42,469 nucleotides of DNA from assembly GCA_030374765.1 (NCBI GenBank), contig JARGXX010000038.1:1-42469 (forward strand), written 5' to 3'. The stretch comes from Agarophyton chilense. Its lineage: Eukaryota > Rhodophyta > Florideophyceae > Gracilariales > Gracilariaceae. Under the pieces are notes generated by a model. It ran no database searches, was not told where the DNA came from, and saw only the letters and a program-made list of their open reading frames with translations. Positions 1,372 to 39,701 of this stretch are shown here, one piece after another; position 1 is the stretch's first letter, and every line of letters starts with the position of its first letter. The position numbers and the translations under genes are program-made.

Positions 1372-2259
1372 TGAAGGACAATGCCCTTCAAGGGGGTTTC
1401 TTCGCAGGACTTAGGAAGTTCGCTCGCTTGAGGACTAGCTTGGTCTATGACAATCTATACCGCTATTACGTGCTAAAGGCCGGTTAGGACCGGAAGTGCA
1501 CACGGGGGGAACACGTGGACTACACGGATGCCAACGCTCGAGTACGAGGCGTGCCACACGTGGCCCGGATTCTACCTATTGGTTAGTATTATTTAGTAAT
1601 TTTTAGTATTTATTTGGCTACGCTATCGCTATTTAGTGTCTATTTTTCGGGCGAGCGCCCACTGTCAGGGGCCGCGCGCCACAGTACTGAGGAGGTTGAG
1701 CACTGCTCCCCAGTAAAGAACCTCTTGGGAGATCCCAAGGAGGGATTCTTGGCTCTGAACTTTTCGCCTTCGGCGCGTCTTCACCGCATACTGCGTGAGC
1801 GCCCGTTGCACGTTAGTTCATCCACCCTTCCGTCAACCAGAGTGCTACCACCACCGTGGGTTCATATTTAATCGCCGACACTTGTCGTAGTCTCGCCCCT
1901 TTATAGGGTTTCGCCCCCGTTTTCCTCTTGTTCTCCTTTTTGGCTCTCGTGAGTGGCCGTCTCACTCACCTCGCTGGTCCACCTCATACGAGTGTTTCCT
2001 CGCTCTTTTTCCGACAATCGCCGTGGTACCGCTCCGCATAGGATTGGTCACACCCCGGACTGTGCCGTGCTCACCTAAACACTCTAGGTATATCCCGCCG
2101 GATTGGCCTCGGTCTTACACCGGACTCCGTCGTGCCTTTCCAGAGTGGCTTTGTTTCTGTGCTCCGCTGGGACGCGTTTCCTCCGCCTGAGGCGTGTCTC
2201 TCAAGAGAGGAAGATCCCGAACATCTTCGTGGTGTCTCCGCTCCAAGCGTTGTCCTACG
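1372..2259 (+). repeat. Element 1 5' LTR (888 bp)
   Basis: Aligned without gaps to 11616-12503 at a constant offset of 10244 bases. It starts TGAAGG; its last base is G where the 3' LTR has A, so the canonical CA end is mutated on this side. A small palindrome CCCTT-C-AAGGG lies near the start (about 1384-1394), an AT-rich stretch at about 1587-1616, and a TTTATAG TATA-like motif at about 1900. The 85-codon frames inside both LTRs are open by chance in my view. Confidence 0.92.
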
Positions 2260-2424: not shown

Positions 2425-3930
2425 ATGTCGTCCAAAGACCGTCCGAGAACGCGGAGTCAAACCGGTGCACCGGAACCATCGCAACCATCCCGTATCCCGG
2501 TCCGTTCACGGTCTAATACCGGTGGATCGACTGGCGTGCCAGGTAGAAGGACCTCGAGACCTCCTGTCTCTGATTCAACACCCCCAGCAAGTGGAGCAGG
2601 ACCAGCGTCTGCCGCCGCCCAGATGCTCTCCCCTGCTAGGGATGTCACCCCCCATCCCAGCCTTGCAGCTGTGGAAGAGCAACTCCGCTCTATGCGGGAA
2701 GCTCAAGTCATCCTTGCAGAGGAGTTCGATTCCCTTCGCAAGAAGGTAAACGACACTGCTACGCAGGATTTTTCTGAGGACCTCCGTCTCCTCCGTGCCG
2801 ATGTGAACTCGATTCTAGAGTCCCTTGGTGGACCCTCGGCCTTTGTCAAGGACGTCGCCGACAAGTTATCGCGGGTCCGAAGCCGTCTCGAGACGTTGGA
2901 ACAAACCCTAATGTCGGGGGATGATCCGGCCGAGCCGGTTGCAGTATCTCACAAGGGAAGAAAGGAAGAGAAGCGCCAGGCTCGAAAGAAGCGAAGGAAC
3001 ACGGATCCCGAACCGTCAGACTCCTCATCCTCGGAGTCCGACTCTTCCGATTCATCGGTGGAAGTAGCTCGCCGTGAGCGCTCCTCAGGCTCTAAGCGGT
3101 CAACAGCCACCCACGGTGTGATCCGCGCCCGCACGAAGGGAAGGAAGCACACGGGTTTGAAGGGGCTGAAACTGACCAATTCGCTCTTTAAGAAGCTCTT
3201 ATCATACCGGTACTACCGTTTGGAGGACTCCTCTTTGGATCGTATACCCCGTAGTACGGGAAGAGTGAAGGACTGCATTAAGCGAATGCCGCTCTCACTA
3301 CGAAACCAGTTGTCTTCTGGAGAAGACCCAATATTGGTGTTGGATTTCTTGCCACGCTTTGTCGCGGAAGCTGACATCCTTGGAATGAACGAGGGACAGG
3401 GCTACACTACCTTACTGTACTTCTTACGTAGGCTTGCAGAAGACCAGTATCAATCTGTCAGAGGTACATCACGCGCGACCGAAGGAGGGGTAGCCTGCTG
3501 GCCCGAAGCAGTCCAGTACCTCCTGAGGTCGTATGCTACTAACTCCGCCATTCAGCAGGCTATACGCGCCCTGCGGGACACTCGCCAACGTCCAGGCGAG
3601 TCGGAAACCGATTATTCGTCGCGCCTTAACAAGGCCTTCCACCGCTGTGCCAATGTTTACCCCGCTGAAGAGCGTTGTACCATGTTTGTCGATGGTTTGG
3701 ACCCGGCGATCCGGACTCTTGTTGCTCGAAGTCGAGAAGATAGGCCTAAAGCCACGTATTTGGAACTAGTGCAGTTTGCTCGTGCAGAAGGTGAAGCCCT
3801 GCGCGCACGCACTCCTGGATCCAGGGTTAGGTCCGCAAAAGCGTTGATGTTACAACCGGGTACCCCGTCAGCTTCGATGATCGACGAACAGGCCTCTCGA
3901 AGGGATTATGATATCGTGCAGCTAAGCTAG
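2425..3930 (+). CDS. Element 1 Gag, main part (501 codons)
   Basis: Starts at an ATG about 165 bases after the LTR. Order of parts: Arg/Ser/Pro-rich N-terminus (1-75); a heptad-rich coiled coil (about 80-165); a basic patch with KEEKRQARKKRR (about 177-190); a Ser/Asp-rich linker (about 195-215). A retrotransposon capsid-type domain follows at about 300-460, containing YLLRSYATN, RPGESETDYSSRLNKAF and MFVDGLDPAIRTLV. These capsid patterns are typical of the Ty3 Gag family, which packages the element RNA. The frame closes at TAG 3928-3930. Sensible Gag sequence then continues one frame back, so this stop is probably the result of a single-base indel between 3912 and 3930. Confidence 0.85.
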   Translation: MSSKDRPRTRSQTGAPEPSQPSRIPVRSRSNTGGSTGVPGRRTSRPPVSDSTPPASGAGPASAAAQMLSPARDVTPHPSLAAVEEQLRSMREAQVILAEEFDSLRKKVNDTATQDFSEDLRLLRADVNSILESLGGPSAFVKDVADKLSRVRSRLETLEQTLMSGDDPAEPVAVSHKGRKEEKRQARKKRRNTDPEPSDSSSSESDSSDSSVEVARRERSSGSKRSTATHGVIRARTKGRKHTGLKGLKLTNSLFKKLLSYRYYRLEDSSLDRIPRSTGRVKDCIKRMPLSLRNQLSSGEDPILVLDFLPRFVAEADILGMNEGQGYTTLLYFLRRLAEDQYQSVRGTSRATEGGVACWPEAVQYLLRSYATNSAIQQAIRALRDTRQRPGESETDYSSRLNKAFHRCANVYPAEERCTMFVDGLDPAIRTLVARSREDRPKATYLELVQFARAEGEALRARTPGSRVRSAKALMLQPGTPSASMIDEQASRRDYDIVQLS

Positions 3931-4490: not shown

Positions 4491-7426
4491 ATGTGGGAGT
4501 CTCCTCTCAAGGAGGGGCGCCCTCGGAGTCGAGGTCGACGGCGCCCGAGGCGTCCAAGCCTCGCTCCCCGGTCAAAATCCTTTCAAGGAAAGAGGCCGTC
4601 AATGACGTGAACTCGGAAGACTTTAGTGTTCTGCGTCGTCCGTGGAAACGTGTTTCCCATAACCGGTTCCCGGATAGAGTTCTGGTGATGGCCAAGAGAA
4701 ACTACAAGGTCTATGCTGACCTTGGCCTTTCACCCCAGTTTATGGTGCGACACCTTACCGTCTTAGACACCGGTGCCGGTCCGAACTTTGTCGTGGAGGA
4801 AGTGTTACCGCCTGCATTGCAGTCTAGGATCCGCCGCGATAACGTCCCGGAGGTGGTTGACGCGAACAACAAACCGTTGGATACGGTGGGGTTCATAGAA
4901 CTGGTATTCCGCGTTGGCGCTCGCGTGGTGAAACTCGACTTCGTCGTATGTCGGAAATTAGTCGCCCCAGTCATCTTGGGTTGCGACTTTTGCGACCGCT
5001 TCGTCGAAGCGATCTTCCCCCGCCAACGGCGTGTAGAGATGGAGGATGGATCGTCCACTCCGATCGTTCGTCGTCCGCTTTGGCGTGCCACGAAGAAGCA
5101 TGTCCCGCTACCGGCAGCACAGGAACCTGGACTGGATAAGCGTGGATCTAATAAGCTCCGCGTCGCAGCGTCGTTATGCGTCCGGCCTGAGTCCCAAATG
5201 ATGGTGAAAGTAACCTCCCGTCAACACGGACTCCGGGTCTTGCAACCATTGTCGTCACTGTATGACAGGCACAGCCTCGCAATTGCGAATGGAATCGTCC
5301 ATGTGGAGCCAAACCAATCGTTTCACGTGCTGATCGCCAATCTAGGGACTATACCCCAGTATCTGGTGAAGAACCAAGTGATAGGGTCCGTCATGCCGCA
5401 CCCCATCGCTATGGTGCCGACAAAGCTGACCGCAGCTGACGTTCTCGGACTCGTTCACTCTAAGGAGGGGGACAGCCCGGAACCCGTTTCATCGCCGGTA
5501 CCCGGGGTTCAACCTGTAAAATCAGTGACGCAGCCCGTTTCAACGAGTGGTGACCGCCCCGATCCAGTCCAAGAACTCGAGGACCTGGATCTCAGCCACG
5601 TCCCGGAGTCATACCGCCATCGATTGCGAGAACTTTTAAGGGGCTTCATCACTATGTGGGACGGCTCCCTTGGTGAGATTGCCACTACGGAACACCGGAT
5701 TGATTTGCTACAGGACACCCGACCCATCTCTCAGCACCCATACCGTGCCGGACCCGCCGCACGCGCGGAGGAAAAGGCACAAGTGAATAAAATGCCTCGA
5801 GCAGGAGTCATTGAACCGGCTCAGTCGCCGTGGGGTTCTCCAGTAGTACTGGCTCCAAAGCAGGATGGTTCCTGGGGGTCTTGCGTCGACTACTGTCGCT
5901 TGAATGCTGTTACCGTCAAGGACGTGTATCCAATCCCAAGAATGGACGAGTACATTGACTCGCTGGGCACCACCATCGTCTTTACAACCCTGCACGCCAA
6001 TTGGGGATACTGGCAAGTTCCGGTAAGGAAGCAAGACCAGGATAAAACCGCTTTCGCGTGTCACTCCGGTCTCTACCGTTTCAAACGGATGTCTTTTGGT
6101 CTTACCAACGCCCCCGCTACTTTCCAGCGAGCCATTGACATCCTATTGGCCCGCTTCAAATGGCGTACCTTCCTGGTCTACCTGGATGACATAATCGTTT
6201 TCTCAGATAATCTGGACAAACATCTCACTCATGTGAGGGATATAATGACCACGCTTCGAGATGCGGGTGTCACTCTTAAGTTGAAGAAATGTGACTTCTT
6301 CACGGACACCGTGAAGTATCCCGGCCATTTTATCCGTCCAGGACGTGTTACAATCGAGGAGACTCGTGTTAAGTCACTCAAAGAGGCTAAAGAACCGCGG
6401 ACGCAAACAGAGCTTCGTTGCTTTCTTGGACTCGCAAACGTCTACCGACGATTCATCCCGCACTTTGCGGACATGGCTGCACCGTTAAACGCGCTCTTGC
6501 GGAAAGGCCAACCACCAAAACTGGACCCCTTAACCCCCGTTCAAACGGAATCTTTCAACTCTCTCAAGGATTTTGTCGTCTCCGCCCCGATCCTCTCGTT
6601 GCCCAAGCCTGGAAGGCCCTTCACCGTAGATACGGACGCCAGCGACTACGAAATAGGTTGTGCACTGTTTCAAACTGTACCCAATGGGGAAAGACGCCCC
6701 GTAGGGTACTGGTCCCGATCGCTAAAGGTCCACGAGAAAAATTACTCCGTCTCGGAGAAGGAATGCCTTGCAGTAGTGTGGGCATTACAAAAGTTGCGCC
6801 CCTATCTCATGGGTAATCATTTCACCGTTTTTACAGGCCACTCATCACTTCGATGGCTACTCTCCATCTCGGAGCCTTCAGGCCGCTTGATGCGTTGGCG
6901 TCTCCGTCTAGCGGAATTTGACTTTGACGTGCAGTACCGAAAAGGATCGTGCAACACCCAAGCCGATGCTCTCTCCCGCCTGGTCACTACTGGCGAAGCA
7001 CTACCCGTCAAAGACGATGAAATACCCTGCCTTGCAGTGAATGGCGACGACGCTACCATCGAGGGCGAGGAACGAGACACAGACTTTTCAGATTCCGGTT
7101 CCGAATTGGACGACTTTCTTCTCTCGAAAGATTCCGAGAAACCCTTACCAGGGAACTTCGTGCCTATTACTCCAGAGGAGATGATACGGGAGCAATTCGC
7201 TGACCCGTTCTGCGCGAAGGTCCGCGCTCAACTCAATGGAGGAGGTACTCTCCCCTTTCAGGTGAATGATGCCGGATACCTTGCACGGACCGTCGGATCG
7301 CACCCACAAATCGTGGTACCACATAACCTCCAGTCGAGAGTCTTGCGGATGTCGCACTACTCCAAACTGAGTGGCCACGTCGGGGGACGGAATCTTTACC
7401 TCACCCTACGCCGTAACTTCTACTAG
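4454..7426 (+). CDS. Element 1 Pol, first part: protease, reverse transcriptase, RNase H, integrase zinc region
   Basis: The frame is open from 4454; no good ATG marks its start, as expected for a frameshift product. Counting from GTG 4493, the aspartic protease motif LDTGAGPN is at residues 91-98. RT follows with CVDYCRLNAV and YLDD (563-566), then RNase H with DTDASD (about 711-716) and DALSRL. The start of the integrase zinc region (SHYSKLSGHVGG) ends at the premature TAG 7424-7426. That stop replaces the Trp expected in the FYWP motif. RT motif A reads TTLHANWGYWQV, with His where the family has the first metal-binding Asp. This Pol should therefore not support reverse transcription. Pol normally copies the element RNA to DNA and inserts it. 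Confidence 0.9.
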   Translation, partial: AAASGGAGPEKLNVGVSSQGGAPSESRSTAPEASKPRSPVKILSRKEAVNDVNSEDFSVLRRPWKRVSHNRFPDRVLVMAKRNYKVYADLGLSPQFMVRHLTVLDTGAGPNFVVEEVLPPALQSRIRRDNVPEVVDANNKPLDTVGFIELVFRVGARVVKLDFVVCRKLVAPVILGCDFCDRFVEAIFPRQRRVEMEDGSSTPIVRRPLWRATKKHVPLPAAQEPGLDKRGSNKLRVAASLCVRPESQMMVKVTSRQHGLRVLQPLSSLYDRHSLAIANGIVHVEPNQSFHVLIANLGTIPQYLVKNQVIGSVMPHPIAMVPTKLTAADVLGLVHSKEGDSPEPVSSPVPGVQPVKSVTQPVSTSGDRPDPVQELEDLDLSHVPESYRHRLRELLRGFITMWDGSLGEIATTEHRIDLLQDTRPISQHPYRAGPAARAEEKAQVNKMPRAGVIEPAQSPWGSPVVLAPKQDGSWGSCVDYCRLNAVTVKDVYPIPRMDEYIDSLGTTIVFTTLHANWGYWQVPVRKQDQDKTAFACHSGLYRFKRMSFGLTNAPATFQRAIDILLARFKWRTFLVYLDDIIVFSDNLDKHLTHVRDIMTTLRDAGVTLKLKKCDFFTDTVKYPGHFIRPGRVTIEETRVKSLKEAKEPRTQTELRCFLGLANVYRRFIPHFADMAAPLNALLRKGQPPKLDPLTPVQTESFNSLKDFVVSAPILSLPKPGRPFTVDTDASDYEIGCALFQTVPNGERRPVGYWSRSLKVHEKNYSVSEKECLAVVWALQKLRPYLMGNHFTVFTGHSSLRWLLSISEPSGRLMRWRLRLAEFDFDVQYRKGSCNTQADALSRLVTTGEALPVKDDEIPCLAVNGDDATIEGEERDTDFSDSGSELDDFLLSKDSEKPLPGNFVPITPEEMIREQFADPFCAKVRAQLNGGGTLPFQVNDAGYLARTVGSHPQIVVPHNLQSRVLRMSHYSKLSGHVGGRNLYLTLRRNFY
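4481..4546 (+). promoter_or_regulatory. possible -1 frameshift signal between gag and pol
   Basis: The last Gag codons are CAG AAA AAC TAA, giving the heptamer G AAA AAC immediately before the stop. Pol is in the -1 frame and is already open here. Shortly downstream are two GC-rich stems: CTCC 4501-4504 with GGAG 4511-4514, and GGGCGCC 4515-4521 with GGCGCCC 4540-4546. A slippery heptamer, spacer and stem is the usual design of -1 programmed frameshifting. The heptamer is imperfect (G rather than A first), and a simple indel would also explain the frame change. Confidence 0.35.
5460..5472 (+). repeat. internal copy of the polypurine tract (1)
   Basis: CTAAGGAGGGGGA, identical over 13 bases to the sequence that includes the polypurine tract at 11601-11613 and to 8598-8610. 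It lies in the pol linker between protease and RT and encodes S-K-E-G-D. It could act as a secondary plus-strand priming site. Confidence 0.55.
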
Positions 7427-9499
7427 CCTGCCATGGCAGTGGACTGCTACACAACGGGGCGGTTTTGTACCGATTGCGCTCGGAACCTTGTCAAACTCCG
7501 CCGTCATGCGACGAAGTTGAAGCTGTTTCCAGCTCGCGCTCCATTGGATTTTGTGGCCATCGATATACTCGGTCCCTTCCTTACCACTAAGCGGAATTAC
7601 AAGTTCTTACTCGTAATTACGGATCGCTTCTCAAAGCTGGTCCGGACCGTACCGTTACGGAAGATCTCCGCTATGAGCGTGGCTCAAGCCTTCGTCCTAC
7701 ACTGGGTCTTCGTCTACGGTCCACCGGTCAACCTCCTCTCCGATAACGGGAGACAGTTCGCCTCTCGTTTCTTAGAAGATCTATGTCGCATCTTGGACAT
7801 TAAGAACCTGTTCACGACCACTTACCATCCCTAAACTAATGGGCAGGCCGAACAGTTCAACCCGACATTACTTGCGACACTCCGTCCATACATTGCAGTC
7901 CACCCCAAAGATTGAGACTTGTTCACCGATGCGCTCACCTTTGCGTACAATACGCAGGTGCACAGGACACCTGGATTAACGCCCTTCGAGCTGGTACTGT
8001 CCCGTACCCCACCGCCCGTGGCGCTTGAACCACAGCCCACGCTGGATACCTTTCCGTCACCGACTGCTTACCGCGAAGCGTGGAAAAGTTGGCTCACGAA
8101 GCTCGTTCCCGCCGCACGGCTTTCAATGGGCCGAGCCCAGGCCGCTTACAAGCGTGACTTTGATATCAAAGCCCCTCGCTCGCCGCCACGTCTCGCCCCC
8201 GACGGCTATGTATTCATCCGCAACGAGTATTGGAACCCAGAGAAGGAGAAACGCCACAAGCTGTCACTCGTTGCCGACAGCCCCTTTCGGGTTATTTCGG
8301 TGGCTCCCGACACTGTCGTTGTTGACCTCCCTGGTAATCACGAACGAATCTCCCGCGATCGCGTGGTATCGGCTCCTCCGCCGCTAACCTCCCAACATAC
8401 TGGTGTTACTGCTCCCGTTGAAACGGATTCATCGACCCCCTTACCCCAGGTCCACCCGCGTCTCTACGCGTTACCACACCCATCCCGGGGTTTGTCTGAC
8501 CTTCCACTACCCGCGGCGCCCAACCCGAAAGGAATCGTGTCGCGCATTCGTCGCTCCTCCCCAGTCCATCCGACGGACACCAACTCCGTTGCATCGTCTA
8601 AGGAGGGGGAGGCGCCCGACAGCAGTCGTAATCCGGTCGATACCGTCGCTGGAAACGCCGCACCGTCGCGTGTCATTCTTCGCCCATCAGGGGTGCCCGA
8701 TACCGACGTCCTCTACGACTCGACGCAGTCGCTATCCAAGCCTCAAAACGCAGCTGCGGATAACGCCATCAACACTCGCCGAGGTGTCACCACACGTACA
8801 ACACGGATTGCAAATGCGCTCGGCGCACCGCAGCCTGATACAGTACGAGTGGACGACGCACCGCCAAGTACCCCGAACAGGGAGGCGGATACATCCACGG
8901 CGCCGACGCCGGACAGCCAGCCATTGGAACGCTCACGTGACTACACGGAATCTCGCCGTGGGACAGAGAGGTGCGACAATGCGCCACCGCCCCAGCGAAT
9001 CTCACCGCCGAAGCAAGCTTCACCACGCCGATTAGCGGAACGACCACCCGGGTTACCCGCTGGTGTGGGCCCTCCAACCGGAGTGGGAAGCGCCGAAACA
9101 AGCCCGGCACTTGGGGAAAATGAACCGCCGAACTCGGGTCGACATTCTACTGAGCCGAGGACTGCCTTGAGCGCTACACGGTCCGACCGGAGCGAAGCCG
9201 CCCGACGCGTGATCACTTCGGTACCCACTGGCTCAGGACGGGTACCACCCGGAAATAGCGACACTATCATACGGGATGGCCGGGAAGTGTACCGACAAGA
9301 GTTCGTGGTCGGACGCATTTCGGAGCACTCCTACCACCCAAAGGGGTATATCCAATACTTGGTCAGTTGGTACGGGTACGGCCCCGAATGGGATTCAGAC
9401 GAACCGATAGAGCACCTACCTCGGTCAAAGGTGGCACAGTATCATCGTCGTACTGTCACGGCTTTGCCGGCTACCATAGACCAAGCCCAAGTGGGATAA
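7427..9499 (+). pseudogene. Element 1 Pol, second part: integrase and chromodomain
   Basis: Continues the pol frame after the TAG at 7424. The zinc region ends with C-T-D-C. The integrase core has DILGP (first Asp), LLSDNGRQF (second Asp) and TNGQAEQFN (Glu), so the catalytic triad is present. Two further in-frame stops interrupt it: TAA 7832-7834, where Gln is expected in YHPQTNGQ, and TGA 7913-7915, where Trp is expected. After a long Pro/Ser/Thr-rich linker, a C-terminal chromodomain is visible at about 9290-9450 (EFVVGRISEHSYHPKG, then YLVSWYGYG and WDSDEPIEHL). Such chromodomains steer integration towards particular chromatin. Ends at TAA 9497-9499. Confidence 0.88.
8598..8610 (+). repeat. 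internal copy of the polypurine tract (2)
   Basis: The same 13-mer CTAAGGAGGGGGA, in the linker between integrase core and chromodomain, encoding S-K-E-G-E. A weaker relative, TCAAGGAGGGGCG, is at about 4507-4519. Confidence 0.55.
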
Positions 9500-9712
9500 G
9501 AAGACACCCGATGGGGATAAAGGAACAGAAGATCTGGATAAGGACCCTTGGAAGAAGGAGAAGATGCCCAGAAGACCTGGAGGAGAGACACTCAGAAGAA
9601 GTGGAAGAGAAGAAAGAGAAGAAATACGCCATAGACGGAAGCAGTTTACTATTTTCGAAGTTGCTGCACACACTACCGCACAGCGGGATATACTAACCAA
9701 GATCACAAGGGA

Positions 9713-11580
9713 TTAGTTGGAAGAACCCAGATTGTCGTGCGCGCCAACCAAATCGCTAGAGGAGTTACTCCCGCCGGTCAGGCGTGCCACGATGGCGTCT
9801 CTCATCGCACCGATGTCGCCGCTCGACGCTTGCGCGTTCAGTCCAACACCCCGAAGGAACTGGGAGATCACGACCGCCACTGGGCGTATGGGAACCTCGA
9901 TAACTTCCGGTTCGTCCTGCAACGCCGCCGCCAATGGATCGATGACGCACCTGCGTGAGTCGCTCCCTGCGCCGGCTGCGCCGTAGTATCGGTACCATCG
10001 GGATCTCCAACGTCTTCCATGACCTCGTCGCCACGGTATTCGCCCTCCTCCTCCAGGAGATTATCACCGCCATAGGCGTAGTAGAAGTCATCCGAGTTGA
10101 CAAACCCCACGGGGTGCCCGTATGGTATGCCTCGCGGAGCCATCCGGGGTGCCGACGATTCCGCCTCGGAGATCTCTTGCTGCTCCCATGGGTTAAAGAA
10201 GATGAAATCTCCCGCCAACGGCGTGCGACGCTCCAGAGATCGATCAGCCCCACCGGCTTCTTGACCACGGCCGCTCTGCCGGACAGGCACGACAGCCCAA
10301 TCGACACGCCCAATGATGTCGATGAGCTCCTGAGCTTCATCAGCTTTATTGACACCTCCAAGAGGGAGTTGAAGGTCCAGCTGCCGGATGTAACCACGCA
10401 AACGCGGAGGAAGATACCACAGTCGATACTGGTCGTAGGCTTCCCACAAGATGTACGCCGCGGCGCGGACTGCCCATTAGGTTAGGACCACGGACCATAA
10501 GCCGGAGTGCAGATCCTCGATGAGGTACGAGCCCAGATAGGAGACGACTGGAGGCAACTCCACGTAACATCCCCGGCACACCTCGACGGAGGACCACCAC
10601 CCAGGCAGGGGAACGTATCGCCCGAACTGATAGAAGGGACTAATCCGGTTTATCTCCGTGTTCTGATGAGGGACAAGGAACCCAAAGCGGGATCTGCCCC
10701 GACGCTCCTCGCAGATGAAGCTCTGTAACCACCGATATCGGGACTCACGACGAAGGTGACGGAACTCGGCACGAATGATCGGACGGACCCAGCAGATCGC
10801 TTCTTGACGCGCTCGCGGTTGACCGCGCCATGCGTAAGTTTCCAACGCCGCAAGGCGGTCACAATAGCCGATCTCCCCCTGAGTCCGGTACATCCGTAGG
10901 TCGAAGCCGAATTCGTCGGGGATGGGGTATTGGAAGTTCGCCCGGCTGATCCGTGAGTAACCGATGCGGACGAATATACAATGCGCCTCTTCCGCCGACT
11001 CGCCCCTTCGCCGCAGAATCGCGTGAACGGGAACCGCCACACGGCGTCGCCAGTCCCACGAAGTAGTGATCAAAGCCGGCAGCTCGCCCGGGAGACGCGT
11101 ATTGCCATCAGCATACGCGGCCACGAGTTCTTCGTCGACGACGGCTGTCGGATGGAACCACGGAGCTCTCCGGAGAATCGCCGCATGTTGACACCGGTTT
11201 AACCCGACGAGCTCGTCGTAACTGGGCCAGGTGTCCCCCGCAGGAGTGATGTGGCTTGAAGCTTCAACGAGACGCCGGGATCGGCTCGGCGCGGTTGACG
11301 AGGCACTCCCCCGCGGAAGGGGAGCCGAATGGAAACCGGAGAAGTAACCCCGGCGGGAATTGTTACCACCGTTCATCGGGAGTGCTGGTCGCCGAGGTAT
11401 CAGGATGTGGTCGCTGGAAGTTGTCGTACGATGCGGAAGAGCGCTCGAAGTTCGAGGAGTGGTTACCGCGTTGTTGCGTTTGTCGTTGGGAGGTGCAGCT
11501 CTGCCTTCGACAGTCGAGTGGTCGCTGGACGCGTTACGCGGCTCGCTCTGATGCCGGTTGGACCGTTGCCTCCCCGCCAT
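9713..11580 (-). pseudogene. Element 1 antisense ORF (about 620 codons), protein of unknown function
   Basis: Starts at ATG 11580, only 36 bases inside the 3' LTR, and runs against gag-pol. A 367-codon frame stops at TAA 10479-10477 and continues in the same frame to 9868. The C-terminus then reads on one frame over to 9713, so one nonsense change and one frameshift (about 9940-9990) separate it from a single protein. Parts in order: Arg/Ser-rich N-terminus; YDELVGLNR; EEAHCIFVRIGYS; CDRL; RAEFRHL; CYVELPPVVSYLGSYLIED; DEAQELIDIIGRVDW; a strongly acidic stretch (NLLEEEGEYRGDEVMED); a C-terminal helix GDIGAMRDAIVARL. The same motifs appear in the same order in the antisense ORF of copy B, which argues that it encodes a real protein. 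Antisense ORFs at this position are known in some plant Ty3/Tat elements; I claim no homology. It ends 213 bases from the pol stop. Confidence 0.7.
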
Positions 11581-11600
11581 GTCGACGGCATATTCGTCAC

Positions 11601-11613
11601 CTAAGGAGGGGGA
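11601..11613 (+). promoter_or_regulatory. polypurine tract of Element 1
   Basis: AAGGAGGGGGA (11603-11613) lies two bases before the 3' LTR, where the family primes plus-strand DNA synthesis. With the preceding CT it forms the 13-mer found twice more inside pol. Confidence 0.8.
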
Positions 11614-11615
11614 TA

Positions 11616-12503
11616 TGAAGGAAAATGCCCTTCAAGGGGGTTTCTTCGCAGGACTTAGGAAGTTCGCTCGCTTGAGGACTAGCTTGGTCTATGACAAGCT
11701 ATACCGCTATTGCGTGCTAAAGGCCGGTTAGGACCGGAAGTGCACACGGGTGGAACACGTGGACTGCACGGATGCCAACGCTCGAGTACGAGGCGTGCCA
11801 CACGTGGCCCGGATTCTACCTATTGGTTAGTATTATTTAGTAATTTTTAGTATTTATTTGGCTACGCTATCGCTATTTAGTGTCTATTTTTCGGGCGAGC
11901 GCCCACTGTCAGGGGCCGCGCGCCACAGTACTGAGGAGGTTGAGCACTGCTCCCCAGTAAAGAACCTCTTGGGAGATCCCAAGGAGGGATTCTTGGCTCT
12001 GAACTTTTCGCCTTCGGCGCGTCTTCACCGCATACTGCGTGAGCGCCCGTTGCACGTTAGTTCATCCACCCTTCCGTCAACCAGAGTGCTACCAACACCG
12101 TGGGTTCATATTTAATCGCCGACACTTGTCGTAGTCTCGCCCCTGTATAGGGTTTCGCCCCCGTTTTCCTCTTGTTCTCCTTTTTGGCTCTCGTGAGTGG
12201 CCGCCTCACTCACCTCGCTCGTCCACCTCATACGAGTGTTTCCTCGCTCTTTTTCCGACAATCGCCGTGGTACCGCTCCGCATAGGATTGGTCACACCCC
12301 GGACTGTGCCGTGCTCACCTAAACACTCTAGGTATATCCCGCTGGATTGGCCTCGGTCTTACACCCGACTCCGTCGTGCCTTTCCAGAGTGGCTTTGTTT
12401 CTATGCTCCGCTGGGACGCGTTTCCTCTGCCTGAGGCGTGTCTCTCAAGAGAGGAAGATCCCGAAAATCTTCGTGGTGTCTCCACCCCAAGCGTTGTCCT
12501 ACA
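11616..12503 (+). repeat. Element 1 3' LTR (888 bp)
   Basis: Gap-free match to 1372-2259, with about 17 differences counted by eye (about 2%), most of them transitions. Starts TGAAGG and ends CTACA, giving canonical TG...CA ends. It is followed directly by the target duplication CCCTG. Confidence 0.92.
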
Positions 12504-12508
12504 CCCTG
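12504..12508 (+). repeat. target-site duplication CCCTG, right copy
   Basis: Matches 1367-1371. It also forms part of codons of the interrupted minus-strand gene (CAG GGT across the empty site). Confidence 0.85.
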
Positions 12509-12646
12509 CAACTCCGAGAGAGCAGGGTTGCTCTCATCGCGAGCAGCCGTGGCACTACGTGATTTGCCATACATCTTGCTGTCCTCAACGACGCGAACTC
12601 CCGACGTAGCATACGCGCAAATGTGATTTGATGGGTTTGGCCTCAT
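12504..12646 (-). pseudogene. 5' part of the host gene split by Element 1
   Basis: A minus-strand frame starting at ATG 12646 (MRPNPSNHICAYATS...), with a second Met in SKMYGKSRS. It reads into the duplication as NPALSELQG, and the same frame resumes at 1366 on the other side of the element. The frame is also open upstream to 12709 without an ATG. The protein, about 120 residues in all, has no motif I recognise. Inside the LTR the frame runs on only by chance. Confidence 0.5.
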
Positions 12647-12720
12647 GACGCAGGATGGAACGGATAGAGAAAGTATTCGGAGACGAAAAGTAACAGGTAG
12701 GAAGGTCAATTAATTTATAG

Positions 12721-12945
12721 TCACAAAGAATAGATTTCATCTAAAAAGCCTCTGATTTCATTGTACAACCGCTTTGTTGTCCATAAAAATTCAGACCACT
12801 TAGTTGGTAACGCAAGATCTTGCCAGCGCCTGAGCACCACGAATTGTACACACAAAGCAAATGCGTTTTGCGTATAGTAAGGCGTACAGTTAGAAACAAG
12901 CTGGCCAAGCCCGACCAGAAGCAGCACAACATTTCGAGCGAGCAT
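12721..12945 (-). CDS. unrecognised ORF, possible exon, 74 codons
   Basis: An open minus-strand frame starting MLARNVVLLLVGLG, with a hydrophobic N-terminal half and a charged end (WTTKRLYNEIRGFLDEI). Just upstream on this strand is a good 3' splice-site pattern at about 13002-12973: TGCTGAC, a T run, then CACAG. This could therefore be a downstream exon of a gene whose start lies further right. A TAG directly after that AG means this frame would need another junction. Function unknown. Confidence 0.25.
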   Translation of the reverse strand: MLARNVVLLLVGLGQLVSNCTPYYTQNAFALCVQFVVLRRWQDLALPTKWSEFLWTTKRLYNEIRGFLDEIYSL

Positions 12946-12979
12946 GTGTATGTAAGGCCGGCCTCCATCGGCTCCAACC

Positions 12980-13750
12980 TACTGTGAAAAAGTCAGCACT
13001 ACTAACGCAGCTCATCTGGAGATAGCCAAAGTGACGAAAAGCAAGCTCGGGGCACGCTATAATTCACAAAGTCAAAAAGGGGACGCCTCTGTAAAGATCC
13101 ACAACTCGGGCGAGTACGAGACGTATGAAAAGAATGAACGAAGCTATTTGGATGCCAGAGGTGCAGTAAATAAGATTAGATTCAGTTATGGGAGAAAAGA
13201 AGAGAAGTTTATGAAGCAATGGGCAAACAAGAGAGCTTGCCAGCTAATAGAGGAACGCCCAAGGAAAGAAAGTCAGAAAAAAGAGTGAGTCAAAGTATTC
13301 ACGTTATTGCTGGTGAGGATAACAATACCAAAGAAACTTCATTATTTGAAAAAGAGAGACGAGTACGGAATTAAAAGTGCAAAAGCCTTGCAATGGACAC
13401 AGAAAGTTTGTGGTTTATACAAATAATTATGTTTGATGACTTATTTAGACACTACCAAAAAGGCTTATTTAAGGTCAACGGAATAAATATAGAACTTTTG
13501 CTTGAAGAGAAAACGTATTCTAAAGTGGAATATAATGATAGAATAATTCTATGTTTTCATGGGTATTGTTTGTTAACATCAAATAAATTTAACTTTTTGA
13601 GGGACGAGGTGAGATGAGGAGTGTGAAAAGGGTTTACAGCCGTACCACTGTTCATAGCACGACCATATCTCTGCTTATCGTCCTGCAGCAACGGCGCGAT
13701 TGAGAACGTTTTTATGAAGTATAAAAATGTACGGGATGAGCTATCGTATC
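12980..13750. other. AT-rich stretch with two unrecognised plus-strand ORFs
   Basis: Two short plus-strand frames lie here: 13031-13288 (85 codons, very rich in Lys, Glu and Ser) and 13393-13617 (74 codons, hydrophobic and aromatic, ending NKFNFLRDEVR). Neither shows a domain I know, and they are in different frames. They could be pieces of a spliced gene or chance. No promoter is obvious. Confidence 0.2.
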
Positions 13751-15747: not shown

Positions 15748-16052
15748 GACACTTCCCGGGGAGAGCATGGTTTCCTTCTGCTTCTGGTCGCCGTTTGGAT
15801 TGCGACATTTGTGTTACTATACATTGAGTCTCTCGTCTTTTGCATCCATCGTGGCCATTGTGAACTGAGCACCTCAGTCACCCAACCATCGTCTTCTTTC
15901 TCCCCTTTCCTCACCCTCCCCCCCTACTCCCCCCCACTGCCCCCTCTCCCTCGTTCCCAGCCATTTCGCCCTTCGCTTTACTTCGTGGTGCCCCCAATTG
16001 TTTCGCTTTGTGTCTGCACTGCCGCAGTCTCCCCGTCTTTGTTTGCTTGACA

Positions 16053-17519
16053 ATGGTTGTGCCAGCTATCATTCGCCAGAAGAAAATCTTCGAGCATGAG
16101 GGATACGTCAGAATCCACCAATCCCTCCTATCTCGCCGAGAAACTAGGTACATGCGCCTGCAGGGATCCATGCTTTCGTTGCATACTTCTGAGGATAAGA
16201 AAGCTGAAATGGAAAAGTCAGTTTTTGGTTGTAAAGTCGCATGCACACTTCTCCCCCGAAGCTTCGTGATAAAGTTCAAGAACGGTCAGAAACTTCGAGT
16301 TTCGTGCAGTTCCAAAGGTGAGGCCGGCAAGTGGAAACAAGTTGTGACCCTGGCCTCAACCAAATCATTTCAGAACGAGTACAAGGGTCGGGGAGAGGTC
16401 GACCTGTCCGGGCGCTGGGCGGTTTTCAACGCAGAAAGCTGTACGGACAAGACGGAAGTGTCCGTGCAGCGATTCCGCCGTCAACCTCAGGGGCGGAACA
16501 AGCTCTGTCACCAACTTGCGACGGGGCGCCATATGTATGCGCTCCAGAATCTGTACAATCCGTGCATTTTAACTCCGATCGATACCTTCGTGGAGAAGGA
16601 GTTCGCGTTTATCATCTACAGACCGATCCACGAAAAGAAGCTGCGAGATATCATCGCAGAAAGCGATGGGATACTCTCGGAAAGGGTTACGAAATGCATA
16701 GTGAGGCAAGTTGTATCGGCCATCAATCACTTGCATCGATCTGGATACGTCCACCGCAATATCTCACTGGACAGCATCCTTTGTGACTTTGCGAATCCTA
16801 CAGATCCGAGAGCTCTTCTGTCGACCTTCAACCATGTTGAATTCGTGGACGCTGAAGATGACCAAACCTTGAGTTCCGCTGTGGGCAGGTCACACTACCG
16901 AGCCCCGGAAATGATTGAAGGGAAGCGGTATAACGCCTCAGTGGATATGTTCGCCCTGGGGGTCTGCATTTACCGAATGTTGTGCGGCTCCTTCCCATTC
17001 AGAATTCCGAAAACTTGTAGGTCTGATATGATCGATGAGCGGAAGCGTGGGCTCATGTTTGACGGAAACGAATGGAAAACCGTTTCCGCAGAAGCCCAAG
17101 ATTTTGTGAAGTCTTTGCTTGACCCGGTCTGGCAGAATCGACCCACAGCCACAGCAGCGATGGAAAGCCGGTGGCTTTCTATGGATACAGCCCTGTGTCC
17201 TATTGGCCAAAATGAATCTGTTGCTTCCGAGACTTCCAGCCATCCAGCGGCAGAAGCTTCCGATGGCGCAGCGGATGAAGGGATACCCAGTGACTCCTCA
17301 TTATCCCATCAGAAAAACTGCATTGACGCCCTTCTGGAATCGTACCAACCACAGTTATCACCGTTTATGCAGCGCTTTCTACGGCCGCTTACGAGCGAAA
17401 CCTCGGTGGAATCTCCAGTGGACGCCTACAAAAGCATCTTTCAAAGCTATGGCAGATCTGCCAATAGCGATTTGCCACACTCGAAATCGCGACATGGCAC
17501 TTCAGATCCGTTAATGTGA
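16053..17519 (+). CDS. PH domain plus pseudokinase protein (488 residues)
   Basis: An intronless gene. I start at ATG 16053 (context GACAATGG), which leaves a complete PH domain; the frame is open a little further upstream without ATG. Residues 14-103 form a pleckstrin-homology domain, EGYVRIHQ to GKWKQVVTLAS, with the near-invariant C-terminal Trp at 94. Such domains bind phosphoinositides or proteins at membranes. Residues about 110-375 have a protein-kinase fold: HLHRSGYVHRNISLDSIL, RAPEM (283-287), VDMFALGVCIYRMLCG and the final Arg 363. The catalytic residues are changed: VSVQ for VAVK (Gln139), HRN for HRD (Asn236), TFN for DFG (258-260), and a degenerate Gly loop. It is therefore most likely a pseudokinase acting as a scaffold or allosteric partner. 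The C-terminus (380-488) is Ser-rich and disordered-looking. No stop or frameshift interrupts it. Confidence 0.85.
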   Translation: MVVPAIIRQKKIFEHEGYVRIHQSLLSRRETRYMRLQGSMLSLHTSEDKKAEMEKSVFGCKVACTLLPRSFVIKFKNGQKLRVSCSSKGEAGKWKQVVTLASTKSFQNEYKGRGEVDLSGRWAVFNAESCTDKTEVSVQRFRRQPQGRNKLCHQLATGRHMYALQNLYNPCILTPIDTFVEKEFAFIIYRPIHEKKLRDIIAESDGILSERVTKCIVRQVVSAINHLHRSGYVHRNISLDSILCDFANPTDPRALLSTFNHVEFVDAEDDQTLSSAVGRSHYRAPEMIEGKRYNASVDMFALGVCIYRMLCGSFPFRIPKTCRSDMIDERKRGLMFDGNEWKTVSAEAQDFVKSLLDPVWQNRPTATAAMESRWLSMDTALCPIGQNESVASETSSHPAAEASDGAADEGIPSDSSLSHQKNCIDALLESYQPQLSPFMQRFLRPLTSETSVESPVDAYKSIFQSYGRSANSDLPHSKSRHGTSDPLM

Positions 17520-29300: not shown

Positions 29301-29392
29301 ACCTCATCACGAATAATGGCAGTCAGTTTGTATCCAAATTGTTTTCGAACGTTTCTGCTACCTTAGGTATCAAACATGTAACCACAACAGCA
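24273..29392 (+). repeat. left arm of a 5.1-kb inverted repeat
   Basis: Reverse-complementary to 33721-38846. In a sampled gag stretch (25058-25879 against 38057-37236) I counted about 7 differences in 822 bases. Identity falls at both ends (before about 24290 and after about 29300). Shared defects include the stops at 24287, 25046, 25877, 27480, 27528 and 28166. Confidence 0.85.
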
Positions 29393-30475
29393 TACCACAC
29401 GCAAACCAATGGTCAAGGCAAACGCTTCAACCGCACCGTTCTGGAACAATTGGCACACTATTTATAGGATCACCAAGTGGACTCGCACGACTACGTTGAA
29501 CCACTTGTTTCTCCCTACAACACGCAATTACACGCTTCGATGGGGACAACAACTTTTGATTTAACTCTAAGGAGATCACCACCGCCGATAGATATTGACC
29601 TTTAGGAGTTCACTTTACCCCAGGACATAACCGAAGGGATGTCTCCTACTCAGGCGAAGCGCTACCCGCGCTGACGCATAGACAGCATTATCCAGTCGGC
29701 TAGAGCTGTACTGAGCAAATCCCAACGGCGCTACAAGGTCAAATTCGACAATTCCGTCTGAAACACACCTACTTTTGGGAAAGGATAATTGGTTTACCTG
29801 TACTGGCCACCGAAAGACAGTGATGAACTCGAGGAGACCACGCGGAAACTCCTACCCCGCTCGACGGGACCATATAAACTCCTTAAGGCCAGTCAACACA
29901 CAATTACGATAGTAATTGACAGCCTACAGGACACCATGTCTATTGATCGGGTGACATGAGCTCCGAGTTCCTCCGGACCATCAATGTCCTGGGCGCTTGG
30001 CCCAACGGTATCAACACGACCTCCGGTCGAGGCTCAAGTCCTCACAGCTTCTAATACAATGTCCGCGGACCTGAAAATACCCATGGACCCATTAGTCAAC
30101 GCCAATGACGATGACCCATCTCTCCCGACCGAGTCCGATGGATTCACCCCTCTGGACCACACTTCCCTTCCGGAGGAGGAATACCAACAGGAATACATTA
30201 TTGAACGAATAATCTCCGCCGGTCGAGGAAAAGATAAGATAATGTGCTATCGCGTCCGTTGGTTTGGCTACTCCACTGAAGAAGACACTACGCAAAAGCC
30301 TCAGACCATTCCGGCGAATTTTATCGCTTGCTACTGGCGCAAAATCGGCAGCACTGAGCGCAGAGTTCAGGAGGGGGCAGCCCTTGGCCCGAAGAATATC
30401 ATAACGCCTCCTAAAACGCCTCTCGATACTCCTCCAAACACGAAAAATTGCCGTAGCTTCCGAATCAGGTAACAA
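26320..30475 (+). pseudogene. copy B Pol: protease, RT, RNase H, integrase, chromodomain
   Basis: Protease LDTGAGPNIV lies at about 26390-26420; a TGA at 26374-26376 just before it is CGA in copy D. RT pieces are FCVDYRKLNAV, FGLRNAPATFQ and VYLDDVITFS (about 27693-27722). RNase H shows NTDASD, a stop, then VGCALLQ. The integrase zinc region and core follow (28844-29467), then a chromodomain at about 30178-30340 (EYIIERI, YRVRWFGY). Two frameshifts (27040-27290 and 27790-27825) and numerous stops interrupt it. RT motif A reads TTLVANSGY, with Val for the catalytic Asp. In integrase the second Asp is Asn (TNNGSQF) and the Glu region reads TNGQGKRFN. It cannot be active. Ends at TAA about 30470. 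Confidence 0.85.
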
Positions 30476-30609
30476 CGTCAGTCCTCAGGCGTCACCTGAG
30501 AACGACCTGAGAAGTTCTAAAGATTCGGACGCCGTCTCGGGGCACGCAAGTTGGGGGAAGTCTGGAGAAACTTTGGGAAAGCAGAAGCATTACTTTATTT
30601 GACTAACTT

Positions 30610-32644
30610 TCAGACACCTAACAGCCCTCGCCATGACCTCAAGGTTCGCAAATGCGCTCCAAACACCAATACGACTCTCCGCAGAGGCGCATGAGTAACT
30701 CGGTCGTCCTCATTGGAGCCTGCAGGAGCGAAAATGGGGCAGGGATGAACCGAGGGTCCCCTTGTATCAATAGGGCCAGCACCAGCGAGTTGAGGACGCT
30801 TCTGCGGCGGAGATTCATCTGAAGAACTATTGTCACCCTCGGGTGCCCCGCAGTCGCTCTAATTTAGACCATACCGGGCACCCAAGTCGGCAGTAACCCT
30901 CTGGGACATCATTTGTGCATTGTGCCGCAGGAGATTGACCATAGCGGTCTTCAGGTCTTCACCCTGGTTGAGATTCGAGGCGTAGCGCGCCGAGCGACGC
31001 ACCCAGGAGCAAGCTTCTCTCAGGACTGTCGCAATTTCCATAGAGGCAGTAATGCCAAGGGTACGGCAGACATGACGACGATCCGCGGCTGCAGCCGTGA
31101 CCGAAGCTGAAAAATGCAGCAATGGGGAGGACTGCGCGATGTAGAAGCCAGCAGTGGACGTCTGAGCCATCGGATCACCTATAGGACTAGCAATTTCGAC
31201 AGTAACCTCTTCAGGAGGGATGTCCATTTGAGCGACGGGAGGCCCATGTGAGAGTTCATCCTGAGGAGCAGCGACTGGAGGAGCTGGAGGAGGGGAGGCG
31301 GTGGGCAACACAACATTGGACTCGACCGGAGGATCGACGCCCTCCACGGGTAAGATGGAGGAATCTTCACCGAAGTAGTTTCCATCGGACATACCAGCAG
31401 GAACCACCGGTGTGGCTTCCAAATCAGGCTCGAAGCACAGTGAATTGAGACCAACGGCCTTCGGGTAATAGTCGGGCACATGACGCCTCGGAATGTCCGA
31501 TTTTTGATTCCTCAAAGGCTTGGCAGGATGGCCACAAGTGTCATTCTAACCCTGTGAATGTAGCGGAATCGGCGTGAACGAGTCGGTATCGTGTTCATAA
31601 CAAAAGAACCCGGGAGTCTCGCTCCACTCCACCTGTAGAACATGATCCCAAAGGGCTTTGGCCTCTTCGACAGCGATCTGGGTCCCATGGACGATGTTCT
31701 GGATGCCCAGGCTTTTTAGGAGAGGGATCATGATGTCCGGAAGCGGGACAAGACGAGCTCGAGGACTGGGTATGTGTTCGTCGGTCCATACCCTCCAATC
31801 GTCCGAACGGACACTACCACGGCCTCTTTACTTTGTCGTATCGAGGAAGGGCATAAGGGACATCACGACGAACTCAACGAAGTGTACCTGCCAGGACAAC
31901 CAAGACCTTCGGTCATTGTCGTTGCCCATGAGCTGGGAAGAATGATACGTGACTACAGATGGAGTGGGAATAAAAAGGGTTGCCGAAAAACGCCAGTAGA
32001 GGGCCCATTGGTTCTCATCCACGCGGAGAAGCGAGAGATATAACGGAGGACGTTTTTCTGCGCTCATGCCGTGAAACTCCACCTGGTTCCAATAGAAGAC
32101 GAACCCCAGGGATTGACCCAAACGACCATCGGGCTCATGCATCTCGTTCCGAGAGACCCTATTGTACATCTAAAACAGGCGGTCATACGGCGGTAGGGAA
32201 GCACATGAGCGCCAAAATGTTGTGATGCGCCGGAGTAAATCTCACGTGAGGCGACATGAAGTCCTCGTATAGGTCCGGAAAGAGTTTATTCACCCTGAAC
32301 TGGTACTCGGCTTCCTCTTCACAACAGACTTACTGCATGTCCGTTTGGATGAGGGGGCGACGGCGCGTCGCCGAACGCGGATCGACAGCACGATGCAATC
32401 AACGGTTATACCACGAGACGCTGCGCGCATTCTTACTGCCGCTCCGGAAATCGGGGATCTTAGCGAACCTCCGGGCGTCGACGAACAGATGAAAAAACGT
32501 CTGGTATTCTTGCACAGAAGAAGGCAGAATGGCATGACGCACGGCTCGCGGATTTCGTCCGATGGTATGGTCATAGCGGTCTCCGGGGCGCTCATAAGTC
32601 ACTTGTTATGCCGAAGAGCTCCTCGCTTGGTTGTTCGAAGCCAT
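30610..32644 (-). pseudogene. copy B antisense ORF (about 680 codons), counterpart of the Element 1 antisense ORF
   Basis: Read from ATG 32644 (MASNNQARSSS) towards TGA 30612-30610, with stops at 32608 and 30861 among others and two or more frameshifts. Recognisable parts in order: YERPGDRYDHTIGRN (about 32595); EEEAEYQFRVNKLF (about 32320); YDRL (about 32190); QVEFHGM; VHFVEFVVMSLMPFLD (about 31870); AVEEAKALWDHVLQVEW (about 31670). A 218-codon acidic and Pro-rich segment follows (31515-30859), ending with GEDLKTAMVNLL, then a Ser/Glu/Pro tail past the TAG. Each motif has a partner at the same relative place in the Element 1 antisense protein. It converges on pol with about 135 bases between stop codons. 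Function unknown. Confidence 0.62.
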
Positions 32645-33304
32645 AGCGCCGCTGTTCACAGATTCGTCCGCCGGAAAATGAATACGGGAACCGATGGAAG
32701 CGACAATATTCGGAGGGATAGTGGCACATCCGACGGGCTTATGAGGCGAGTTCGGCATCGCGCACGAACAATAGAGCAATACCACGACGGGAAGGAGGGA
32801 AGATGAAACCGAATCGGTCAGGATAACCGACGTGATCCCGAATGGACGAAGCGCGCGCCATGGTTCACGGCGGACGACGCGCGTAGGGTCACGAAAGAAA
32901 TGGCGAATGATAGGAAAAGCGGCAAGGACCCTTCCCTCCCTGGTGCGCGTACAGTACATTACATGAATTAATTACCGACCTGGCGCCAAGGTTCAGATCA
33001 TATGCACTGGTTCCCCCGAGGATGGTGGCGATACGACGCCCCGTTGCGCCCACTGGTAACGATAGCAACAAACCCCCCGATTGGTCATAAGACGCCGACA
33101 TGTCGGACACGGCACCGCTCGTGTCCAGGCCACTAGGACGCTGAGGATTATGACGTTCTGACCCCGAAGGCAAGATTGGAGGTTCACCTGTAGGTCCAAT
33201 TAGAGCCAGACCCCCAGGAAGGTGTGAGGCAATTTGGAATTCGCCGTGACGGTCGAATCCTAAGAAGGGAGATATGTGAAGAACCAAGGATTAAGGCTGA
33301 GTAT
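32645..33304. other. region between antisense ORF start and second LTR of copy B
   Basis: Upstream of the antisense ORF. The minus-strand frame 33287-32889 (132 codons, starting MVLHISPFLGFDRHGEF) begins 18 bases inside the LTR. It could be an N-terminal extension or a separate short ORF; I find no counterpart in Element 1. The expected polypurine tract before 33305 is poor (AAGGATTAAGGCTGAG). Confidence 0.35.
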
Positions 33305-39637: not shown

Positions 39638-39701
39638 TGTACCAACCGTTATTATCGCTCCTTCACACCCTCAGAGGATTCGACGAGAACCCACGATAGC
39701 A

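What the first reader, a model, noticed from the sequence alone, without database searches (positions are those of the whole stretch)
9713..11580. Conserved antisense gene in two distant Ty3 families (Element 1 and copy B)
Seen: in both families the space between chromodomain and 3' LTR holds a long ORF on the opposite strand (11580-9713 and about 32644-30610), of similar length (about 620 and 680 codons). By eye the two proteins share motifs in the same order: EEA-x(2)-F-x-V, DRL, EF, [YF]VE followed by a hydrophobic run, EA-x(2)-L-x-D-x(3)-V-x-W, an acidic segment, and D-[IL]-x(2)-AM. gag and pol of the two families differ greatly, so a chance open frame would not keep this order. Known: some plant Ty3/Tat elements carry antisense ORFs here, of unknown role. 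Inference: an accessory protein made from an antisense transcript, perhaps regulatory, under selection while the families were active.
Basis: partly seen in the sequence, partly recalled or inferred. Interest (0 to 1): 0.87.

Follow-up and report, generated by a model that had tools for sequence, protein, structure and literature searches.

The report
Antisense gene in seaweed jumping genes
A large group of retrotransposons in what appears to be a red seaweed carries a second, real protein-coding gene on the opposite DNA strand, kept by natural selection across at least five element families, so these genomic parasites appear to use both strands of their DNA.

Summary
The window's ~80-Mb genome is inferred to be a red alga (Gracilariaceae). 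Between chromodomain and 3' LTR, Element 1 and copy B each carry an antisense gene (about 622 and 680 codons). Both window copies are broken; open copies exist elsewhere in the genome. The two proteins are homologous (hhalign probability 94%; 0 of 100 column shuffles reach the score). Three more families (E2-E4) carry the gene in the same place at 47-56% identity; fetched E3 and E4 copies are open for 652 and 673 codons. Gracilariopsis chorda encodes relatives. The antisense frame is under purifying selection: in family B dN/dS is 0.44 (0.39 against one reference; neutral simulation 0.84); in family E1 alone the signal is weak. In E1 and E3 the first ATG lies 35 bp from the LTR, so the mRNA should start inside or beyond the 3' LTR. 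No significant Pfam or PDB match and no usable fold. Best reading: a nuclear regulatory accessory protein made from a 3'-LTR antisense promoter, convergent with plant aORF-3R proteins and retroviral HBZ. The gene is well supported; transcription and function are inferred. It is not a plant Tat/TRP28 gene.

The parts
1372..2259 (+). 5' LTR of Element 1 (888 bp)
   Evidence: 98.2% identical to the 3' LTR; target-site duplication CCCTG at 1367-1371
2425..3930 (+). gag of Element 1 (501 aa)
   Evidence: Retrotrans_gag E 9.2e-6
4493..7426 (+). pol of Element 1, first open stretch: RT, RNase H, start of integrase
   Evidence: RVT_1 1.7e-27, RT_RNaseH 3.2e-37, Integrase_H2C2 7e-4 (below its cut-off)
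7919..9499 (+). Element 1 integrase C-terminal part with chromodomain
   Evidence: Chromo E 1.5e-4 at residues 462-511 (22.0 bits, cut-off 25.1)
9713..11580 (-). Antisense gene of Element 1 (about 622 codons; in this copy one in-frame stop at 10477-10479 and one frameshift near 9946-9982)
   Evidence: 111 places scored of 1,611 candidates in the genome
10477..11580 (-). Longest open part of the antisense gene in this copy, 367 aa from ATG
11604..11615 (+). Polypurine tract of Element 1; antisense ATG lies 35 bp from the LTR
   Evidence: closely similar tracts in families E2, E3, E4 and B
11616..12503 (+). 3' LTR of Element 1, presumed site of the antisense promoter; TSD CCCTG at 12504-12508
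   Evidence: promoter role inferred from position only
30173..30343 (+). Chromodomain remnant of copy B
   Evidence: 30% identical to the Element 1 chromodomain, E 9e-6
30612..32758 (-). Antisense gene remnant of copy B (about 680 codons; frameshift near 32195 and internal stops)
   Evidence: 150 places scored of 660 candidates in the genome
33275..33718 (+). 3' LTR of copy B, at least to 33718
   Evidence: match to 23444-23894 at 82%

Best explanation
The interval is a true protein-coding accessory gene of a group of Ty3 chromodomain elements of a red alga, on the strand opposite gag-pol between the chromodomain and the 3' LTR. Shown: the frame is homologous across at least five element families, is open in many copies, evolves under purifying selection as protein, and has relatives in a second genus. 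Inferred: it is translated from an antisense mRNA that starts in the 3' LTR (an LTR working in both directions) and ends near the 3' end of pol, giving a convergent, two-strand element. Inferred and less sure: the roughly 590-680-residue protein (basic N-terminus, conserved Trp/Tyr-rich core, acidic segment, short conserved C-terminal stretch, and in family B a PKKRxRL-like nuclear signal) works in the nucleus on the element's own DNA, RNA or chromatin and tunes LTR expression or silencing. This is functionally like the antisense proteins of plant Grande/Retand elements or HBZ of HTLV-1, but of independent origin.
For: Homology E1-B. Families E2, E3 and E4 at 47-56% identity, in the same place and orientation. 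Closely similar polypurine tract, and first ATG 35 bp (E1, E3), 46 bp (E4) and 97 bp (E2) from the LTR. Stop-to-stop frames of 600 codons or more with no stop in the matched stretch: 59 of 118 scored places and 8 of 111, tallied; six checked directly. Selection: dN/dS 0.44 in 37 B copies and 0.65 in 19 E1 copies in the antisense frame. Against one reference copy the means are 0.39 and 0.64, where neutral simulation gives 0.84 and 0.89. Across E1-E4 pN/pS is 0.46-0.52 per pair, against means of 0.64-1.43 in the other five frames, which hold 3-20 stops per sequence where the antisense frame holds 0, 0, 0 and 1. Second genus: Gracilariopsis chorda proteins P0010 (45% over 92% of the query) and P0011. 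Nuclear hint: KRAR and KRTR motifs in the two B proteins scanned. Precedents: nuclear GENE23 of Grande, HBZ (passages seen).
Against: No RNA or protein evidence was available. No Pfam match near a cut-off in ten proteins, no PDB relative and no usable structure model, so function rests on analogy. Only family B shows a clear nuclear-signal-like motif; of five E-type proteins scanned, four show none and E1 has only RRRR. In family E2, 2 of 9 elements have lost the antisense gene or most of its region, one of them beside a 1,823-residue open sense frame, so it is not strictly needed in cis. Family E1 selection is weak: the observed mean 0.64 lies within the range of the neutral simulation (minimum 0.52), and only 5 of 19 E1 copies and 2 of 37 B copies have no stop in the antisense frame. 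The copies were not chosen at random. In B the ATG lies 411 bp (L041) or 516 bp (window) from the LTR, so there the LTR promoter is not forced.
Confidence: 0.5

Rival explanations
1. The antisense protein is an anti-silencing factor: it acts on host chromatin or small-RNA silencing to keep the element expressed, as VANC proteins do for VANDAL transposons (recalled), rather than regulating the LTR promoter directly.
For: Own gene, conserved among high-copy families; an arms race would fit the strong divergence between E and B proteins (21-26% identity). Antisense transcripts of the element could themselves feed silencing (idea in passages), which a protein might counter.
Against: No domain or fold to support it; about 50% identity across E1-E4 is slower than expected for an arms-race protein.
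Confidence: 0.2
2. It is a structural or envelope/movement-like protein of the particle, simply encoded on the other strand.
For: Size near that of gag or env; Trp/Tyr-rich core; one hydrophobic stretch of KD 1.82 in a B protein.
Against: The five E-type proteins scanned have no stretch above 1.54; a particle protein on a separate antisense mRNA would be unusual; no similarity to Element 1 gag (best E 0.089).
Confidence: 0.15
3. Only the antisense RNA matters (double-stranded RNA regulation); the open frame is incidental.
For: Antisense non-coding transcripts exist in other elements (passages).
Against: Protein-level purifying selection, frame-specific openness in several families, about 50% protein identity with synonymous differences near saturation.
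Confidence: 0.03
4. The open frame is a mirror artefact of a sense-strand gene or of GC-rich composition.
For: The frame opposite in codon phase also has a lowered ratio (0.53 in B, 0.64 across E1-E4), and sense open frames of up to 411 aa overlap the gene.
Against: That mirror frame holds 14-20 stops per sequence in E1-E4 and a median of 26 in B; in E1-E4 no sense frame is without stops over the 560 shared codons.
Confidence: 0.01
5. The gene is a recently captured host gene carried by one or a few copies.
For: No relatives outside these algae and one unnamed source among the candidates scored.
Against: Present in at least five families and hundreds of places, at one fixed position where seen, with relatives in Gracilariopsis; an old capture stays possible as origin.
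Confidence: 0.03

Closest known systems
Antisense aORF-3R of plant Ty3 Tat/Retand elements (maize Grande gene23, rice RIRE2, Silene Retand; TRP28 domain, PF04195)
   Same: Antisense gene between pol and 3' LTR, present in most copies and in several families, unknown role; Grande's protein is nuclear (passages).
   Different: Retand elements are described as non-chromovirus elements of flowering plants; here chromodomain elements of a red alga. No TRP28 match listed at E up to 10 in ten proteins scanned. Grande uses a promoter in the region upstream of gene23; here in E1/E3 only 35 bp separate ATG and LTR.
HTLV-1 HBZ and related retroviral antisense proteins (APH-2, HIV-1 ASP)
   Same: Antisense gene near the 3' end of a provirus; the 3' LTR carries a negative-sense promoter (passages); proposed nuclear regulator.
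   Different: HBZ is a bZIP protein; no bZIP match here; no evidence of common descent.
Boty of Botrytis cinerea / Sclerotinia sclerotiorum
   Same: A non-plant LTR element with an antisense ORF between pol and 3' LTR (section text).
   Different: Fungal; its protein was not compared here.
Annotated hypothetical proteins of Gracilariopsis chorda (BWQ96_03215, BWQ96_10156) and unnamed products of Agarophyton chilense
   Same: True sequence relatives: 39-55% (G. chorda against E-type proteins) and 59-87% (A. chilense) identity.
   Different: Listed as unnamed proteins; nothing in the names links them to an element; their genomic context was not seen.

Membership tests
Ty3 chromovirus | LTRs with target-site duplication | tested here: met
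   (Element 1)
Ty3 chromovirus | RT - RNase H - integrase order in pol | tested here: met
Ty3 chromovirus | Chromodomain at the end of integrase | tested here: met
   the window copy scores 22.0, below the Pfam cut-off 25.1; E2 chromodomains score above it
Ty3 chromovirus | RT falls inside the chromovirus clade on a tree | not tested
   no RT tree was built
Plant Tat/Retand aORF (TRP28) family | Antisense ORF between pol and 3' LTR | tested here: met
Plant Tat/Retand aORF (TRP28) family | TRP28 domain PF04195 | tested here: not met
   not listed at E up to 10 in 10 proteins (HMMER filters drop most matches above about 0.1)
Plant Tat/Retand aORF (TRP28) family | Non-chromovirus element of flowering plants | tested here: not met
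   chromodomain present; relatives found only in red algae and one unnamed source
HBZ-type retroviral antisense gene | Antisense gene whose mRNA starts in the 3' LTR | not testable with these tools
   no RNA data; start codon 35 bp from the LTR
HBZ-type retroviral antisense gene | bZIP domain | tested here: not met
Real protein-coding gene | Purifying selection in that frame only | tested here: met
   decisive for B and for E1-E4 together, weak within family E1

The most novel reading that the evidence does not exclude
A whole clade of red-algal chromodomain elements is genuinely two-stranded. Each LTR fires in both directions, and the antisense gene, older than the split of Gracilariopsis from the host of the window, encodes a new family of DNA- or RNA-binding regulators. 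These act on the LTR tip, where E1-E4 all carry a short palindrome that differs in sequence between families but keeps its pairing (no chance control was run).
Probability: 0.2. Interest if true: 0.8.

Novelty: new variant of a known kind. Interest (0 to 1): 0.63.

Why it matters
Antisense accessory genes are known from plant Tat/Retand elements, a fungal element and some retroviruses; their role in the retrotransposons is unknown. A protein with no detectable tie to the plant domain, in the same place and orientation in chromodomain elements of a red alga, with clear selection and relatives in a second genus, argues that this layout has evolved more than once and does something useful for the element. 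It also means that public gene sets of these seaweeds list proteins related to retrotransposon genes as unnamed genes. The 113 positions invariant in six E-type proteins give a handle to look for it in other algae.

Tried and rejected
Oomycete origin: I first guessed Phytophthora from base composition and size. An Elicitin search found nothing (though the tool's controls were silent too), and relatives pointed to Gracilariaceae, so the guess was dropped. Structure: both AlphaFold jobs gave mean pLDDT about 31, so no fold search was run. Pfam and PDB: only two matches far below cut-off (DUF5575 E 0.32, Caskin1-CID E 9.3) among ten antisense proteins, and no PDB hit. Viral contigs: no confirmed relative of P0003. 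Similarity of the antisense protein to Element 1 gag or pol: none of weight. L062 is a host CHD1-type remodeller; antisense frames in L061 look by eye like a protease/pol fragment of another element (no domain scan). A first profile comparison was weak (probability 41%), and a forced global mode gave nothing (probability 0.2). Binning dN/dS by dS exaggerates the trend because both share noise; I rely on bins by total distance instead.

Selection bias: the 20 E1 loci and the first 20 B loci are the best protein matches, and the other 20 B loci were chosen for long open frames, so stop counts and, to a lesser degree, dN/dS are favourable. L066 and L067 were also picked as open copies. Four duplicate rows were dropped, and pairs with too few sites were skipped. 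Protein searches scored only the 7,990-7,997 best candidates each; one search missed a relative that one search found, so absence elsewhere is not shown.

Full report
What was checked. The window (42,469 bases) is contig C38 of an assembly of 79,762,974 bases in 135 contigs. Element 1 is a Ty3 element: LTRs 1372-2259 and 11616-12503, 98.2% identical over 887 bp, with CCCTG on both outer sides. Gag, RT, RNase H, integrase and chromodomain follow in order on the + strand. Its ATG is at 11580 and its stop codon at 9713-9715. In this copy it is broken by an in-frame stop at 10477-10479 and by a frameshift near 9946-9982, so the open part is 367 residues. Copy B carries a remnant from 32758 to about 30612, with one frameshift near 32195 and internal stops.

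Are the two proteins related? Yes. An open copy of the Element 1 type (P0001, 622 aa) and one of the B type (P0003, 682 aa) align with E = 3e-7 as a single pair; another B copy gives 3e-4. The Smith-Waterman score is 87, with none of 500 full shuffles (maximum 64) and none of 500 20-residue local shuffles (maximum 77) reaching it. A first profile comparison with near-identical E1 rows was weak (probability 41%). With four E families it rose to 94.4%, E 8.8e-8, score 67.5 against at most 29.1 in 100 column shuffles. The sense proteins of the two families differ comparably: gag 29%, integrase parts 26-32%, RT about 50%.

More families. A fetched element on C128 (L063) carries the same gene antisense between chromodomain and LTR. 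Searching with its open 342-residue part found 118 scored places among 1,646 candidates, in three identity classes: 94-100% (7 places, called E2 here), about 53-59% (E3) and about 57-65% (E4); the split between E3 and E4 by matched range is mine. Open copies fetched from E3 (L066, 652 codons stop to stop, about 645 from the first ATG) and E4 (L067, 673 codons stop to stop, 591 from the first ATG) align with E1 and E2 at 47-56% over 570-608 residues. The end of a chromodomain lies on the opposite strand beside each of L063, L066 and L067. For B, four antisense hits lie 503-552 bp from an opposite-strand chromodomain hit (C80 twice, C92, C68), and copy B in the window has a chromodomain match at 30173-30343. 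So at least five families (E1, E2, E3, E4, B) share the gene, with closely similar polypurine tracts and LTR starts.

Is it coding? Among 19 distinct E1 copies the antisense frame has dN/dS 0.65 and a median of 1 stop, against 0.78-1.06 and medians of 8-25 stops in the five other frames. Among 37 distinct B copies it has 0.44 and a median of 3 stops, against 0.53-1.30 and 13-26. Copies with no stop at all in the antisense frame: 5 of 19 and 2 of 37; in every other frame none. Neutral simulation with the observed spectrum gives 0.89 (minimum 0.52) for E1 and 0.84 (minimum 0.60) for B; observed means against the same reference are 0.64 and 0.39. So B is decisive and E1 alone only suggestive. In B the ratio falls from 0.54 to 0.39 with growing nucleotide distance, as expected if old divergence between active elements was constrained and recent decay was not. 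Across E1-E4, over 560 codons, pN/pS is 0.46-0.52 with stop counts 0, 0, 0 and 1; the other frames have mean ratios of 0.64-1.43 and 3-20 stops per sequence. The copies were not a random sample (see Tried and rejected). Stop-to-stop frames of at least 600 codons with no stop in the match make up 59 of 118 rows and 8 of 111 rows (tallied); I checked six of these directly.

Host and spread. Protein searches gave relatives only from Agarophyton chilense (59-79% for B, 87% for an E1 piece), Gracilariopsis chorda (two hypothetical proteins, 617 and 565 aa) and one unnamed source. The window's host is therefore inferred to be a red alga of the Gracilariaceae (taxonomy), perhaps Agarophyton itself. 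On a small tree the G. chorda protein P0010 and the unnamed-source protein P0009 sit together (100/99) and beside E4 with moderate support (88/99), while E1, E2, E3 and P0011 are not resolved. If the element was inherited vertically and that grouping holds, the E4 line is older than the split of the genera; horizontal transfer is not excluded.

How it may work. The first ATG lies 35 bp from the LTR in E1 and E3, 46 bp in E4 and 97 bp in E2, so an mRNA with an ordinary leader must start in the 3' LTR or in host DNA beyond it. In B the distance is 411 bp (L041) or 516 bp (window copy). In Element 1 the antisense stop codon lies 213 bp from the end of the sense frame, so the two units converge. 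The protein has a basic N-terminus, a conserved core, an acidic stretch and a conserved C-terminal segment. The two B proteins scanned carry PKKRxRL-like motifs; P0005 has a related PPKKRAPL. The E-type proteins have no hydrophobic stretch above 1.54, though one B protein reaches 1.82. This fits a soluble nuclear protein better than an envelope. No fold or domain was found, so the regulatory role rests on position and on precedents: the nuclear GENE23 of Grande and the 3'-LTR-driven HBZ (passages seen).

Against. In family E2, the C21 copy lacks the whole gene by a 2-kb deletion (sense positions 413-2429 of L063 missing, 98% identical flanks). It still has a 1,823-residue open sense frame. Another copy on C68 has the flanking halves only 523 bp apart instead of about 2,096. 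So 2 of 9 E2 elements lost the gene or most of its region; neither deletion form is seen more than once. The gene may thus be dispensable in cis, or supplied in trans by relatives.

What is known. Passages of PMC11963269, PMC7264820 and PMC10186651 describe antisense ORFs in plant Tat/Retand elements (TRP28 domain in Retand), Boty of fungi, and retroviruses with 3'-LTR antisense promoters. Searches listed no paper whose title or shown abstract start reports an antisense gene in red-algal retrotransposons; apart from the three named papers I saw listings only. I rate it a new variant of a known kind: known layout, a protein family not matched to any known one, new host group, with selection shown.

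Noticed in passing
L063, L065, L066, L067, Element 1 at 11616-11641: The first 25 bp of the LTR hold a short palindrome that differs between families E1-E4 but keeps its pairing (CCCTTCAAGGG, CCCTCTGAAGGG, CCCTCGTGAGGG, CCTCCAGGGAGG); it would lie in the antisense leader or promoter (no chance control).
   Followed up: partly
G000:C21:174089-174239 and C68:2781903-2782504: Two E2 elements have lost the antisense gene or most of its region by different deletions; one has a 7-bp overlap at the junction and an open 1,823-residue sense frame.
   Followed up: partly
window 8980-13080 and 29362-33015 versus G000:C17: C17 carries copies with 1 difference in 4,101 bases and 0 in 3,654 bases, but in another order and spacing, so C38 may be a haplotype or assembly duplicate that is rearranged.
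   Followed up: no
window 24205-29394 and 33721-38914: Two B-type copies form a large inverted pair (arms of 4.6 kb, 98% complementary), with a third copy at 39667-42467 at about 82%.
   Followed up: no
window 16008-17519: An open frame with a protein kinase domain (E 3.8e-35), probably a host gene, lies between the elements.
   Followed up: no
G000:C68:3139012, 3148209, 3157406: Three antisense genes of the E4 class spaced exactly 9,197 bp apart with identical scores suggest a tandem array of an element.
   Followed up: no
L061 (G000:C113:592400-595900): Downstream of another chromodomain, the antisense strand reads by eye as a protease-pol fragment of a second element in opposite orientation, not as the accessory gene.
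   Followed up: no
P0010, P0011 (Gracilariopsis chorda), P0004-P0006, P0012 (Agarophyton chilense): Public protein sets list relatives of this element gene as hypothetical or unnamed proteins.
   Followed up: partly
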